NCBI RefSeq assembly: GCF_032854445.1
Contig: NC_088295.1
Span: 19,083,385 to 19,147,384, forward strand
Direction of reading: 5' to 3'
DNA from: Liolophura sinensis
Lineage: Eukaryota; Mollusca; Polyplacophora; Chitonida; Chitonidae
DNA: 64,000 nucleotides
Shown here: one piece after another, positions 42,755 through 59,767 of the stretch
Layout of the letters: every line of letters starts with the position of its first letter
Numbering within the stretch: position 1 is the stretch's first letter
Position numbers and translations under genes: made by a program
The notes under the pieces: model-generated
Databases searched by the model: none
What the model was told of the DNA's origin: nothing
The model's input: only the letters and a program-made list of their open reading frames with translations

Positions 42755-45700
42755 GTAATGACGTGGACCAAGCATGAACCTCCAAATCTGCCAAACGACA
42801 GAATATAATGCTGAGGTGTTTTATTACCAAATCAAAATATTAAACTAAGTAATATGAATATGCACGGGAAAGGACATTTGAACACTAATGCATTACTCGG
42901 CAAGGTGACATTGAAACTTTAGTAGGTATGACTAGAAAATAAGTTTTATACTATAGCACTATGTACATGTACTGTTTAGTCCCCTACTATATTTCGCTCT
43001 CTGTTGATAACATCATTACTTGTGTTGTGATGCGTTCAAGGTTGATTGTCACTGTGAGTCTCTGAATCAAGGCGACGTGTTTATATTGGACTGTGGACAA
43101 ACCATATTTGTATGGAGCGGTCCGAGGAGCAGCAGAACAGAGAGGATCAAGGTGAGAGAAATAGTTACTACAGAGGTTAAGGTCAGAGAAGTGGTTACTA
43201 AAAAGGGTCATAGTGAGAAAGATGGTTATTAAAAGGTCAAAGTGACAGAGGTGGTTACTACAGAGGTAAAGGTGAGAAAAGAGCTACTGCAGAGATCAAG
43301 GTAAGAGAGATGGTTACCAGAAAAGGTCAAGGTGAGGGAGATGTTACTAAGAAGGTCAAAGTGAGAGGTGTTACTAAAAGAGCTTAAAGTGAGAGAGGTG
43401 GTTACTATAAAAAGTCAAAGGGAGAAAGGTATTACCAGAAAAGGTCAAAGTGAAACAGGTGGTTACTAGAAAAGGTAAAAGTAACATAGATGGTTACAAG
43501 AGAGAGGATTAAGGTGACGAAGGTAAAGAGAAAAGGTCATGAAGAAAAGAGGGGTTTACAAGAAAGAATCAAGATTGGACAGGTGGTAACTAGGGAGATT
43601 CAATATGAGAGAGGTACTAAAAAGTGGATCAAGTTGAGACGGGTGTTAGCCAGATGTAATTAAGGTGAGAGGGGCGGCTGGTAGAGAGGAAGACAGTAAG
43701 ATCATATTAACTAAAGAGAAGGTGTGACAGGTACGGAGTAGTTCGAGAGAATCAAGTCAAGAGAGGTGGTATCTAGAGAGAAGCAAGGTGTGGTATGCCT
43801 CAGCAGTAGCGTGAGCATGGCTTCAGTCGCCCACGTCACATTCAGAGGACAAAAACATCTTGAAGTCACATGTCGCTAATAGGGATTCATCAATGTTTAA
43901 TTTAATTAATTTTCCGTTCAGGGCACAGAAGTTGCCAGACGTATTCGAGATGAAGAGAGGGGTGGAAAGGCTGTCATACACATCGTTGGTGAGCTTAAGA
44001 CCTGGGTGCAAACCAGTAGTATAAATTGTGAAGGACAAGAGTTTTAAAAGTTTTCACTATTACTTACAGACATTTAATGGTAGAATACAGAATAATCCGT
44101 TAAATGTGAAATAATATTGTCGATGCAACAACTGTATAAAAAGACGTCACGTGTGCTACTAAATGTTCCAAATTAAAGCTTACAGATCTGTACTTAATGT
44201 TCAAAACCCATCGCCGGAAAATTGTCAAAGCTGTTGATCGGTCAGCGATAATCCTTGTTAAGACTATGCTTATAGCTGTAACCAGAATGTTTCCAATGTA
44301 GTCTTCCAGAAGGTAATTAGAGTGTGCAAGTACAATTATATTTTTTTTTCGATGGTTGAGACGTCTAAGTATTGAAATGGGATTTGAATTTTCTTTTATG
44401 AAAATTACGTGTACGTATGTCTGTACGTATATTTTCACCTTGTATAATCAGATGACGACAGGTGGGAAACAGACGTGAAGTTTTTCAAAGTGTTAGGTTC
44501 AAAATGTCCGATACGGTCTGCCGAGGAAGGGGGTGACGACAGAGAGTTTGAGAGGCTCTCACAACAGGACATCAGGCTGTTCAGGTCAATATATTTGTAC
44601 ATTTTATATGTAGATCACATGTAATTACACCACTTAGGTTAAGTTAATATTAACTTAATATTAAGTTAAATTAAGTTTAGATAATGTTAATTCGGTAGTA
44701 TACAGATAGTAACTTGTAACAAACATCTTACGTATTGTGCAAGGAACTATTTTTGGTGTATGACTGCATATTTGTCTCTTCACAAGCGCTATCTAGTAAG
44801 TATGTTCACCAAAGTTACCACCATTAACACTTTTAAAACTTTGGGGTTTGTAAAGCTGTAAACCCATCAAAAGTCTTGTATTTAAACAGAGATTGGGAAC
44901 TTTTTGATTTGCTTGTCATCAATCAGCCTGTTCCTTTAGAAATCACAATCACATCGGCTAAAGTCTCTACATTGTCACAAAATCTTTACATACAGATAAA
45001 CAGGATGTTTCCATGCTGTTGTAGGGTTTCCGATGCGAGCGGCTCACTGGAAATACAAGAAATCGAAGAGAAACCTTTCACACAAGAACACCTTGATTCA
45101 AACGTAAGAAGCTTTAAATGTGTATTAGAATAAAGATAAAATTAAACTTTCAAAAAGGCAAAATTTCAGCAGCAAAAATTTTTTATAATCCCCTTTTGTT
45201 CCATTATATATTTCAATACAGTCTGGTTGTGTCTGATATAAAAATACTTGATGTACTTATATCATGAAAGACTTACCGCATAAAGAGTAATACCAATGCA
45301 GCGACGGCAGTGTGAAAGTTGGTAACACGTGATCAGTGAAATACGTCCTCTTGTCAATTTATGACAAAAATTCTAAACCTAAAACCTGATGCAAAATGTA
45401 GTAAGGGGAGTTTTTAACATTTCGACATGTTTTTCAGGATTGTTTCATCCTTGATTCCGGACCCAGTGGAATCTGGGTATGGGTGGGCAAACAGTGCACC
45501 AAGAACGAGAAAAAATCCGCATGGAAAAACGCCACGGTAATCAACGTTTTTCATAATAAATCATGTTACGAAATAAATTAATTGTCGGTAAAAAGAAATC
45601 TTGATTTAATTGTTTGTTGGCTTTGGGTTTTAAATCACTGTCTTGATACGACGGTGTTACCTAGAATGTCTCTCCCAACACAGGCATATCTGTTATGGTT

Positions 45701-57700: not shown

Positions 57701-59767
57701 AGGCAGGACATTTATAACTTTAGCAAAGAAGGAAAACCGTTGGATGGACTATAATATTCTCACTGATCTTATACTTCATCAATATTACAACGCTCAAAAT
57801 ATATACATATGTGAAATAAGAATGTCAGAGATATTCAGGAAAAAGTGTTTATAATGTTTAATTTTTTCAGGAGTATATCGACACGGACCCTGTGGGTCGT
57901 ACTCCCGACAGCACGCTATTACTCCAGGTAAAACAGAACCACGAGCCGGCAAGCTTTACCTGTCACTTCCTGGGTTGGGATCCAGACAAATGGCAGGTAA
58001 GGCTCACTCAAACGTCAGTTCAGATCCACACGAACAACGGTCAAGGTTCACACAAACAGGAATCAAGACTCACAAAAATGGGTGTCAAGGCTCACACAAA
58101 TGAGGGTCAAGACTCACACAAATAAGGACCTAGACTCATACAAATGGAAGTCAGCAACACGCAAGGGGTAGGAAATCTATGACCCTCAAGTATATCACTC
58201 GTAAGCAATTGAGGTGTGTTTCACGATCCACCCTAGCGGAAGGCAAGACCCATCCGTACAGGAGACAAAAAAAACACTAAACATGAATTCATATGTAGAA
58301 GCATATGTTAAAATTAATTTTTTTCTGGTTTTTTTTTGTGGGGGGGGGGGGGGGGGGGGGGGTAAGAGAAACTGTGTAACGGAAGAGCTCTGTTTTCGAA
58401 TAACATTGTGGGTTTGTTGTTGATTTCAGCATGGAAAGTCTTATGAGGACATCAAGGAGGAGCTGGGAGCAGAAAATGCCGGTGTCACTCTGGTAGATGA
58501 GGTCAGTGTATGCTGTGTTACTCTGGTAGATGAGGTCAGTGTAAGCTGTGTTACTATGGTAGATGACGTCAGCACAGACTGCGACCAGTCATGTCGTAAG
58601 TTCAAATCCAGCTGAGTTTTACATCAGTAAATTTGACACCAAACTATCACGAAGCCGTGATTGCTAATCGAACTATGATAAATAAGAATCAAAGAGACTG
58701 AAGCATAGTTGCCTTAGTCGAGACTCTTCAACCTTTTGAATGATTATTTAATAGTGCCCGGTATAATTTCCATCAAGAAGTGCATCTGTTAACCTTATAC
58801 AGGAACTGAAGAAGTACCAGCGTACATACTCTTTTGATGAGTTGAAGCGTCGTCTGCCGCCAGAGGGAGTAGATGTCACCAATAAAGAGGTAAAAACCAG
58901 TGAGACTGTTCGAAACTTGATTGTGAGTCGTAATGAAATATTGGTGGGAAAATATGGTCAAATTCGTCAGAATTTATCCTACATGATTATTATTGATTTT
59001 CATCACCAAAAGGCACAGTATTAATGTTTTATTTACTTCGCATCTTAATACATCCATCTCCACCAATATGCCTTATCAAGTAGAATAATATTTCAAAAGC
59101 ATCCAAAAGGCATTACGTTGTGGTTCATTATTCTGTTTTTATTTTAGTGTTTAAGAATACTAGAAGTCAGTATTTTGCAAATATATATAGTATATAGTAT
59201 ACGTGGCATTTTGTATTAAAGTTTCTCCTGCTTTCATCTGCGACCAACTTGTGTCGTTTTGAAATGAAGATATTTAGTGCATATGTAATAAGGCTCCGAG
59301 GCCGAGGGAGTGTTCTGATTATACCCTGCTTCTATATTTTTCGGGGCCTAGGCGCCAATAAGTGGTCTTCGGTGCTTTCTTGTGTTGCTTTGTATTATGT
59401 TCTAAGAGGACGACATGCCTTAATTCCCACAATATGACATAGCCATACGTGGTCGAGTTCATGAGAAACTCGCCAAACGCATGGCACATTCCTGTTTCCT
59501 TCGCCCATAAAACTGGCCGAGATCATGGTATAAATCAAAATTTCTTCTATATGGCGTTAAAACAACAATTAGTCAGATCCTTTCCGGTACGCTATATAAA
59601 TGTCATCAAACCTCAGTGGGACATTAAACTGACATATCGTATTTGAATTTTAGAATTTTCTCAGTGACACGGAGTTCGAGCAGATTTTCGAAATGGACAG
59701 GGAAAAATATGACTCGCTTCCTCGATGGAAACAGATTGATCTGAAGAAAAAAGTTGGTCTTTTCTGA
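38579..59767 (+). CDS. Villin, complete, 27 coding exons
   Basis: An 807-residue actin-binding protein made of six gelsolin repeats and a villin headpiece; vertebrate villin has about 827. Family role: calcium-regulated severing, capping and bundling of actin filaments in microvilli and similar cell protrusions. The exon chain is 38579-38647, 39880-39954, 40861-40932, 41143-41220, 41486-41538, 42649-42754, 43041-43151, 43922-43988, 44452-44584, 45025-45103, 45438-45536, 46012-46168, 46420-46514, 46887-47024, 47283-47372, 47986-48057, 48347-48433, 48761-48844, 49061-49122, 50564-50657, 50906-50998, 55738-55782, 57062-57127, 57871-57996, 58430-58501, 58803-58889, 59654-59767. The lengths add to 2424 bp with consistent phases and no stop. 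ATG 38579 has the better context (acaATGg); an in-frame ATG at 38558 would add seven residues. Two acceptors are AAG. No sign of pseudogenisation. Villin-like or advillin-like naming cannot be separated by eye. Confidence 0.93.
39672..39722 (+). repeat. Tail of another SINE type in villin intron 1
   Basis: CACTATATAGCTGAAATAAT, then GCCGTAATATTAAACC and CATCATTCATT. It resembles the GCTGAATATTGC-GGCGTTAAAC-CATTCATTCA type of tail seen in many molluscan SINEs, also present at about 8590-8625. Confidence 0.45.
40170..40256 (+). repeat. SINE remnant in villin intron 2
   Basis: CACATATACGTGGAAATTTT, TGAGTATGGCATATAG and CAATCAAACAGATAAATAAATA form a diverged copy of the common SINE tail. Confidence 0.55.
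41555..42000. repeat. Minisatellite in villin intron 5, ~22-28 bp TTCTGACTACAG unit
   Basis: Repeated, diverged copies of a unit like TGTTCTGACTACAGTTCTCT. Many copies join a branch-point-like CTRAC to ACAG and a pyrimidine run, imitating 3' splice sites. The array begins about 20 bp past the exon 5 donor. The real acceptor is at 42649. Confidence 0.8.
42412..42533 (+). repeat. 5'-truncated SINE in villin intron 5
   Basis: CTGCGGATGGGCTTCCCCGG, CTGCCCGGTTTCCTCCCACC, CGTATAAATGGAATATTCTT and (AAAT)n. The head and the front of the body are absent. It sits about 115 bp before exon 6. Confidence 0.9.
43041..44584 (+). CDS. Villin exons 7-9: gelsolin repeat 2
   Basis: Residues 152-255. Exon 7 encodes [20 protein letters not shown] and the helix start RTERIK; exon 8 encodes [19 protein letters not shown]; exon 9 encodes [20 protein letters not shown] and the linker towards repeat 3. 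Exon 7 follows an AAG acceptor (GCGTTCAAG|GTT); alignment with gelsolin shows no missing residues, so the choice is firm. The last 15 bases of exon 7 and the donor are repeated in the following intron. Confidence 0.92.
43137..43790. repeat. Junction-derived minisatellite in villin intron 7, ~30 bp unit
   Basis: About 20 diverged copies of a unit with ACAGAG, TCAAGGTGAGAG and GTGGTTACT. The first copy spans the exon 7 end and its donor (GATCAAG|GTGAGA). A later copy has AGATCAAG|GTAAGA at 43301, an equal or better donor by consensus. The first intronic copy is 30 bp away and in frame (adding [10 protein letters not shown]); TAA follows at about 43230. Confidence 0.9.
45025..46514 (+). CDS. Villin exons 10-13: gelsolin repeat 3 and mid-protein linker
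   Basis: Residues 256-398. Exon 11 encodes [20 protein letters not shown], exon 12 [14 protein letters not shown] and [14 protein letters not shown]. Exon 13 is a charged linker (367-398, e.g. [16 protein letters not shown]) joining the N- and C-terminal halves. Exon 12 uses an AAG acceptor (TTTGAAG|GAC) and ends in phase 1. Confidence 0.92.
46887..48057 (+). CDS. Villin exons 14-16: gelsolin repeat 4
   Basis: Residues 399-498, phase 0 throughout. [12 protein letters not shown] starts the repeat as in repeat 1, followed by [36 protein letters not shown] and [17 protein letters not shown]. This matches the start of the C-terminal half of villin and gelsolin, which in the family also binds actin under calcium control. 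Confidence 0.93.
48347..50657 (+). CDS. Villin exons 17-20: gelsolin repeat 5
   Basis: Residues 499-607. Exon 17 encodes [17 protein letters not shown], exon 18 [20 protein letters not shown], exon 19 [14 protein letters not shown], exon 20 [18 protein letters not shown]. Exon 19 ends in phase 2. The intron after it (49123-50563) contains the 36 bp minisatellite. Confidence 0.93.
49328..49990. repeat. Minisatellite in villin intron 19, 36 bp unit
   Basis: Tandem copies of a unit with CAAGAGCTTGTGGA, ACATTCCATGAGA and TCGTCTGT. Central copies are 36 bp; outer copies are more diverged. Because 36 is a multiple of three, several frames on both strands stay open across the array; these are by-products, not genes. 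Confidence 0.88.
50906..57996 (+). CDS. Villin exons 21-24: gelsolin repeat 6
   Basis: Residues 608-717. Exon 21 encodes [20 protein letters not shown], exon 22 the tiny [15 protein letters not shown], exon 23 [20 protein letters not shown], exon 24 [15 protein letters not shown] and ending [10 protein letters not shown]. Intron 21 is 4.7 kb, the longest in the gene. The sequence around the exon 24 donor is repeated in the next intron. Confidence 0.93.
50999..55737 (+). other. Villin intron 21, 4.7 kb
   Basis: The longest villin intron. No supported gene inside: open frames up to 119 codons (53219-53578 minus) have no recognised motif. A weak tRNA-like head (AATGGTTAAAGGTGTTTGCCG) lies at about 51514. 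The sequence TGATGTCGCCGACATAGTGC around 51390 looks repeat-like but is single here. Confidence 0.5.
57980..58150. repeat. Junction-derived minisatellite in villin intron 24, ~22-24 bp unit
   Basis: About seven copies of a unit like TCAAGGCTCACACAAATGAG. The first copy covers the exon 24 end and donor (GACAAATGGCAG|GTAAGG, then CTCACTCAAA). Later copies read GGTGTCAAGGCTCAC, so the donor GTAAGG has become GTCAAG and is no longer a good splice site. Confidence 0.85.
58340..58362 (+). repeat. Poly(G) run of 23 in villin intron 24
   Basis: 23 uninterrupted G, preceded by a T-rich stretch and ending 67 bp before exon 25. It could form G-quadruplex structure in DNA and pre-mRNA. Its length is likely to vary and to be error-prone in sequencing. 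Confidence 0.95.
58430..59767 (+). CDS. Villin exons 25-27: linker and headpiece
   Basis: Residues 718-807. Exon 25 is the linker ([18 protein letters not shown], ending VTLVDE). Exons 26 and 27 form the villin headpiece: [37 protein letters not shown], then [16 protein letters not shown] and TGA. The P-x-W-K motif, the basic Lys run and the C-terminal GLF are the F-actin-binding hallmarks that separate villins from gelsolin. Exon 25 ends at a GTCAGT donor that is copied twice downstream. Confidence 0.94.
58487..58585. repeat. 33 bp triplication of the exon 25 end and donor
   Basis: Copies start at 58487, 58520 and 58553. Copy 1 is the exon end ACTCTGGTAGATGAG plus the donor GTCAGT; copy 2 is almost identical; copy 3 is diverged (GATGAC|GTCAGC). 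The frame stays open through all copies until a TGA near 58615. Confidence 0.95.
59485..59580 (+). repeat. Possible SINE remnant in villin intron 26
   Basis: CCCATAAAACTGGCCGAGAT, CATGGTATAAATCAAAATTT, CTTCTATATGGCGTTAAAAC follow the order of the SINE body end and tail with many changes. It ends about 70 bp before exon 27. Confidence 0.45.

What the first reader, a model, noticed from the sequence alone, without database searches (positions are those of the whole stretch)
58487..58620. Exon end and 5' splice site triplicated in frame at villin exon 25
A 33 bp unit (the last 15 bases of exon 25, the GTCAGT donor and 12 more bases) is repeated three times with its donor kept. 33 is divisible by three and there is no stop until after the third copy, so splicing from copy 2 or 3 would insert 11 residues ([11 protein letters not shown]) or 22 residues. 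The insert falls in the flexible linker between gelsolin repeat 6 and the headpiece, where extra length is tolerable and would change how far apart the two actin-binding parts sit. Copies and frames are read directly; use of the donors is inference.
Basis: partly seen in the sequence, partly recalled or inferred. Interest (0 to 1): 0.75.

Follow-up and report, generated by a model that had tools for sequence, protein, structure and literature searches.

The report
Tandem repeat straddling villin splice donor
In a chiton villin gene, a short piece of DNA holding the end of an exon and its splicing signal is repeated three times; it looks like one of several ordinary short repeat arrays that run across exon ends in this animal, and whether the extra signals ever lengthen the protein has not been shown.

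Summary
The repeat is real: three 33-bp copies (58482-58580; A/B 31 of 33 identical, B/C 26 of 33) carry the end of a villin exon and its 5' splice site. Copy A is the authentic exon end: a villin paralog in the same genome has an intron there, and PDB villins align. Copy B has the same donor (GAG|GTCAGT), in frame and stop-free, so an 11-residue insert is possible. Copy C's donor is decayed (below all 65 donors sampled), so the 22-residue form is unlikely.

The repeat is not peculiar to this linker. Of 66 homology-supported donors in 15 gene loci of this genome (Liolophura japonica), 5 lie in tandem repeats spanning the exon end, including a second in this villin gene (whose next copy is also in frame and open) and three in myosins, where the coding frame stops before any copy. 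Tandem arrays fill about 17% of the sampled sequence; donors are not hotspots. The kind is known as 'mirages' in amphioxus, where regular splicing is reported. Best reading: a neutral donor-spanning minisatellite with copy A as main donor; copy B is a plausible but unshown second donor.

The parts
58430..58501 (+). Villin exon [24 protein letters not shown], phase 0 at both ends
   Evidence: paralog exon ends ...GIQIVKE|GTGGGT; PDB villins 9jvt/9jus align. No Pfam family matches this exon alone
58482..58514 (+). Repeat copy A: last 20 bases of the exon, donor, and 7 further bases
58515..58547 (+). Repeat copy B, 31 of 33 identical to A
58548..58580 (+). Repeat copy C, 26 of 33 identical to B, 25 of 33 to A
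58502..58507 (+). Donor A, GAG|GTCAGT, taken as the main 5' splice site
   Evidence: 46th percentile of 65 donors of this genome; intron position shared with the paralog
58535..58540 (+). Donor B, identical 9-mer, +33 nt, in frame and open; candidate second donor
58568..58573 (+). Donor C, decayed GAC|GTCAGC, +66 nt, in frame
   Evidence: Below all 65 donors
58596..58601 (+). GTC|GTAAGT downstream of the array, +94 nt, out of frame
   Evidence: 6th percentile
58803..58889 (+). Next villin exon [29 protein letters not shown]
59654..59767 (+). Last exon with the headpiece domain and stop codon
   Evidence: PF02209 at 59657-59764; exon start read
43141..43497 (+). Second array (about 30 bp period) in the same gene, beginning 11 bases inside an exon and spanning donor 43152 (AAG|GTGAGA); its next copy at 43182 (AAG|GTCAGA, +30) is in frame and open and would add [10 protein letters not shown]
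   Evidence: alignment 34 against at most 28 in 2000 shuffles
58027..58146 (+). 22-bp array in the preceding intron whose unit resembles the intron start at donor 57997 (intron side only; weak)
   Evidence: score 25 against at most 24 in 2000 shuffles

Best explanation
A minisatellite of three 33-bp copies grew by local tandem duplication across the 3' end of a villin exon and its 5' splice site. Copy A remains the authentic exon end and, by inference, the main donor; copies B and C are treated as intron and drift. Because the period happens to be a multiple of three and the copies carry no stop, occasional splicing from the equally strong copy B would do little harm and would add 11 residues to the linker before the headpiece. 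Shown: array, copies, frames, homologous exon end, donor scores, other such arrays in the genome. Inferred: mode of origin, donor use, neutrality.
For: Array far above chance. Exon end at copy A matched by the villin paralog on C4 and by PDB villins. Arrays spanning both sides of the donor at 5 of 66 donors in 15 gene loci, four besides this one; in three of those four the coding frame stops before any copy. Tandem arrays cover 38,187 of 229,412 bases sampled, and the share of repeated 35-mers rises from exon (1 of 66) through donor (7 of 66) to intron (8 to 12 of 61-66), so no donor-seeking mechanism is needed. Copy C decayed, A and B alike, as expected of array turnover. The three differences between the two would-be inserts are all amino-acid changing. 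Amphioxus arrays of this kind are reported not to disturb regular splicing (PMC3087553, passages; PMC3902484, passage).
Against: Donor B is identical to A over nine bases and its surroundings are nearly identical, so nothing seen here tells the spliceosome to prefer A. In this villin gene both arrays have an in-frame, open next copy (2 of the 5 arrays), which selection could also explain, though two of five is near the one in three expected. No RNA reads were available.
Confidence: 0.7

Rival explanations
1. Functional alternative donors: copies A and B are both used and give villins whose linker differs by 11 residues.
For: Donors A and B identical, both at the 46th percentile of this genome's donors; 33 nt, open frame, linker position. 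An exon in a C4 myosin gene seems to use the same 9-mer. The other array of this gene also has an in-frame open second copy, at the 37th percentile against 72nd for its true donor.
Against: The same kind of array occurs at three myosin donors where the coding frame stops before any copy, so the arrays as a class are not made for protein diversity. The two would-be inserts differ only by amino-acid changes. Regular splicing is reported for amphioxus arrays.
Confidence: 0.22
2. Assembly or consensus artefact: copy number wrong because of the repeat.
For: A run of more than 20 G lies at 58340-58362 just upstream, and no reads could be inspected.
Against: The three copies differ from each other at 2 to 8 of 33 bases; 99 bases are short against HiFi reads averaging 8,347 bp (PMC11068029, passages); one match in the assembly at the sensitivity used.
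Confidence: 0.04
3. Early stage of an exon-end shift or intron change: the exon end is moving to a downstream copy by repeat-derived donors.
For: Intron gain from mirages and from tandem AG/GT duplications has been proposed (PMC3087553, passages; PMC4974935, listing with start of abstract).
Against: Copy C already decayed; paralog and PDB villins end at copy A.
Confidence: 0.04

Closest known systems
'Mirages' of amphioxus (Adh3, troponin C and globin genes; similar repeats in PGBD5)
   Same: [quoted passage not shown] cluster edges escape homogenisation (PMC3087553 and PMC3902484, passages read)
   Different: Here in a mollusc; next copy in frame and stop-free; splicing and length polymorphism not tested. 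Amphioxus cases include acceptor-side arrays.
Intron gain by tandem duplication of AG/GT segments (potato RdRp case, PMC4974935; search listing only)
   Same: Tandem duplication carrying splice signals
   Different: There a new intron arises; here no new acceptor and no new intron is seen
Alternative tandem 5' splice sites (kind recalled, from no call)
   Same: Two equal donors a short way apart, in frame
   Different: Use not shown here

Membership tests
Mirage-type exon-intron minisatellite | Tandem repeat units spanning an exon-intron boundary | tested here: met
   copy A holds 20 exon bases and 13 intron bases
Mirage-type exon-intron minisatellite | Minisatellite-size unit (10-160 bp in the amphioxus Adh3 and globin cases) | tested here: met
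   33 bp; range from PMC3087553
Mirage-type exon-intron minisatellite | Many but not all copies keep AG/GT signals | tested here: met
   A and B GAG|GTCAGT, C GAC|GTCAGC
Mirage-type exon-intron minisatellite | Edge copies escape homogenisation | tested here: inconclusive
   C is the outlier (7-8 of 33 differences against 2), but there are only three copies
Mirage-type exon-intron minisatellite | Regular splicing not disturbed | not testable with these tools
   No RNA data held
Mirage-type exon-intron minisatellite | Length instability between haplotypes | not testable with these tools
   One place only found in the assembly; no second haplotype or reads
Functional alternative 5' splice sites | Both donors used in mRNA | not testable with these tools
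   No RNA data held
Functional alternative 5' splice sites | Both donors of usable strength and in frame | tested here: met
   A and B met; C not
Villin | Gelsolin repeats followed by a headpiece | tested here: met
   PF00626 hit at window 43041-43145 and PF02209 at 59657-59764; paralog alignment. Only one gelsolin exon of this gene passed the Pfam search

The most novel reading that the evidence does not exclude
Chitons carry donor-spanning minisatellites at several percent of their introns, a standing natural experiment in how the spliceosome chooses among identical donors; where the copy spacing is a multiple of three, as at two exons of this villin gene, the array yields proteins of two lengths, variable between individuals.
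Probability: 0.22. Interest if true: 0.6.

Novelty: new member of a known kind. Interest (0 to 1): 0.4.

Why it matters
Arrays of near-identical donors at real exon ends let one ask which copy the spliceosome picks and how exon ends survive repeat growth. They seem common here (5 of 66 donors), and in the held library the searches for the kind by name gave only two amphioxus papers (none). Wider searches showed no mollusc case in what was listed, but one search listed 12 of 23 papers and most listings were not opened. If copy B is used, the spacing between villin's core and headpiece would vary with repeat number.

Tried and rejected
A longer exon ending at the consensus-like GTAAGT at 58596 was considered and rejected: it adds 94 nt, shifts the frame, and scores in the 6th percentile.

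Hairpin masking of donors: the RNA fold of 58472-58620 is no more stable than shuffles (z -0.01, 95 of 200 shuffles as stable).

Donors as repeat hotspots: rejected. A first automatic set gave 13 of 88 donors with downstream copies (score 28 or more) against 245 of 1623 random downstream positions. The curated set gave 7 of 66 at the donor (5 spanning both sides) against 8 to 12 of 61-66 inside introns. Acceptors: 5 of 84 at the junction, but also 5 to 6 of 84 at exon positions, so that automatic set is noisy. Genome-wide pairs of CAGGTAAGT 10-40 bases apart: 370, against 237 for the reversed pattern; long arrays dominate the part that is listed and single-site frequencies were not measured, so I draw no firm conclusion from it.

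Exact positions show that the array at 43152 has one too, so that claim is dropped.

Rows dropped: from the automatic donor set I left out calls not backed by a Pfam-listed exon or a homologous exon, some of them repeat-rich (in myo_C3 index 3847, 13105, 13179, 13327, 14187; in myo_C12 100 and 14106; in myo_C1a 8056). The curation was done, so 5 of 66 is a rough figure; without the locus under test it is 4 of 65, without the whole villin gene 3 of 49. Of the stretches fetched, gel_C1b gave no curated donor and L010 (C6) was not used in the count. Donors of two villin exons were corrected by one base.

The 22-bp array after donor 57997 is only weakly related to it and on the intron side alone; it is not counted among the five.

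Full report
Where it is. The window lies at C1:19083385-19147384 of a 609,464,459-base assembly in 632 contigs whose contig C1 is 96,433,062 bases long. The published chiton Liolophura japonica assembly has 632 scaffolds, 609,495,693 bases, longest 96,433,062 (PMC11068029, passages read), so I take the species as that one. The gene is villin-like on the + strand: gelsolin-repeat hit at window 43041-43145, headpiece at 59657-59764, and many exons matching a paralog on C4.

The observation. TRF finds a 33-bp period at 58482-58572; 20 surrogate sequences gave no array above score 57, against 154 here. The three copies differ at 2 (A/B), 7 (B/C) and 8 (A/C) of 33 bases. The exon ends at 58501. Donors A and B are the same nine bases, GAG|GTCAGT; C is GAC|GTCAGC. 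Against 65 donors of this genome, A and B fall at the 46th percentile, C below all, and the out-of-frame GTC|GTAAGT at 58596 at the 6th. GTC donors occur at 3 of those 65, one with the very same nine bases. The reading frame is open through all copies, so B would add [11 protein letters not shown]. The second would-be insert, [11 protein letters not shown], differs by three codons, all amino-acid changing (read).

Which copy is the exon end. The C4 paralog has ...GIQIVKE|GTGGGT, with the intron in the same phase, matching ...GVTLVDE|GTCAGT. PDB villins 9jvt and 9jus (organism not given by the call) align without gap over [24 protein letters not shown], and their whole stretch to the C-terminus is 8 residues longer than the copy-A form (98 against 90). 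So copy A is the ancestral exon end, and an added 11 residues would not be far outside natural villin linkers.

Is it special to this linker? No. I gathered 15 gene loci (villins, gelsolins, and nine myosins found by PF00063) and 66 donors supported by Pfam exons or homology. Seven of 66 donor-centred 35-mers have a good copy within 500 bases; in five of these the copy includes the exon side: villin 58502 (33 bp), villin 43152 (about 30 bp), a C12 myosin (31 bp, 17 downstream copies, all with GT, over 525 bases), a C3 myosin (124 bp, three further copies with the same donor) and a C11 myosin (32 bp). In the three myosins the coding frame stops 1 to 39 bases after the true donor, before any copy; if those genes work, they must be spliced from the first copy (inference). 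In the array at villin 43152 the next copy, at 43182 (AAG|GTCAGA), is in frame and open and would add [10 protein letters not shown]; its donor is weaker than the true one (37th against 72nd percentile), and the coding frame stops at +78. So two of five arrays, both in this gene, have an in-frame open next copy; one in three would be expected by chance.

Strength of the copies. In the C12 myosin the true donor is CAG|GTGAGT, 16 downstream copies are weaker, and the last one is again GTGAGT. In the C3 myosin the three further donors equal the true one. In the C11 myosin most copies equal it. At villin 43152 two of the later copies equal or exceed the true donor. At villin 58502 copy B equals A and C is far weaker. 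Weakening of the copies is therefore not a general rule.

Why so many. Tandem arrays of period 10 or more cover 38,187 of 229,412 bases in the sampled loci. The share of repeated 35-mers rises from 1 of 66 at 60 bases inside the exon to 7 of 66 at the donor and 8 to 12 of 61-66 in the intron. Arrays thus run across donors no more often than through introns; I see no donor-seeking mechanism. The villin unit gave no second match in the assembly at the sensitivity used, which skips simple repeats and very common words.

What is known. Tandem repeats spanning exon-intron boundaries were named 'mirages' in amphioxus (Adh3, globins, TnC; similar repeats in PGBD5). The passages read say that regular splicing is not disturbed, that many but not all copies keep AG/GT, that cluster edges escape homogenisation, and that they may feed intron gain (PMC3087553; PMC3902484). 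The Adh paper was asked for by an identifier from memory and was not held. My searches listed no such report for a mollusc (one search listed 12 of 23, and the one Conus paper listed was not opened). An earthworm metallothionein paper with intronic minisatellites did not, in the passages read, describe donor-spanning ones (PMC12783039).

Verdict. The finding is a real donor-spanning minisatellite, a member of a known kind in a new phylum as far as my searches go. Its second copy is a donor of equal strength, in frame and stop-free. Use of that donor is open.

Noticed in passing
window 43141-43497: A second donor-spanning minisatellite in the same villin gene, about 30 bp period, starting 11 bases inside the exon; its next copy (43182) is in frame and open
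   Followed up: yes
L019/L020 (C12 myosin, joined and reversed, index 2584): Myosin exon end followed by 17 downstream donor-like copies at about 31-bp spacing; 16 weaker than the true donor, the last equal to it
   Followed up: partly
L024 (C3 myosin, end of the fetched stretch; index 14063): 124-bp near-perfect repeat holding about 115 exon bases and the donor, at least three further copies, running off the fetched stretch
   Followed up: partly
L012 (C1 myosin, index 5707, 6191, 6794): Three similar blocks in a row for the same part of the myosin head, looking like mutually exclusive exons
   Followed up: no
window 58340-58362: Run of more than 20 G in the intron just upstream of the villin exon
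   Followed up: no
L028/L029 (C7:50125000-50138000): Gelsolin-type exons on both strands, so probably two neighbouring genes in opposite orientation
   Followed up: no
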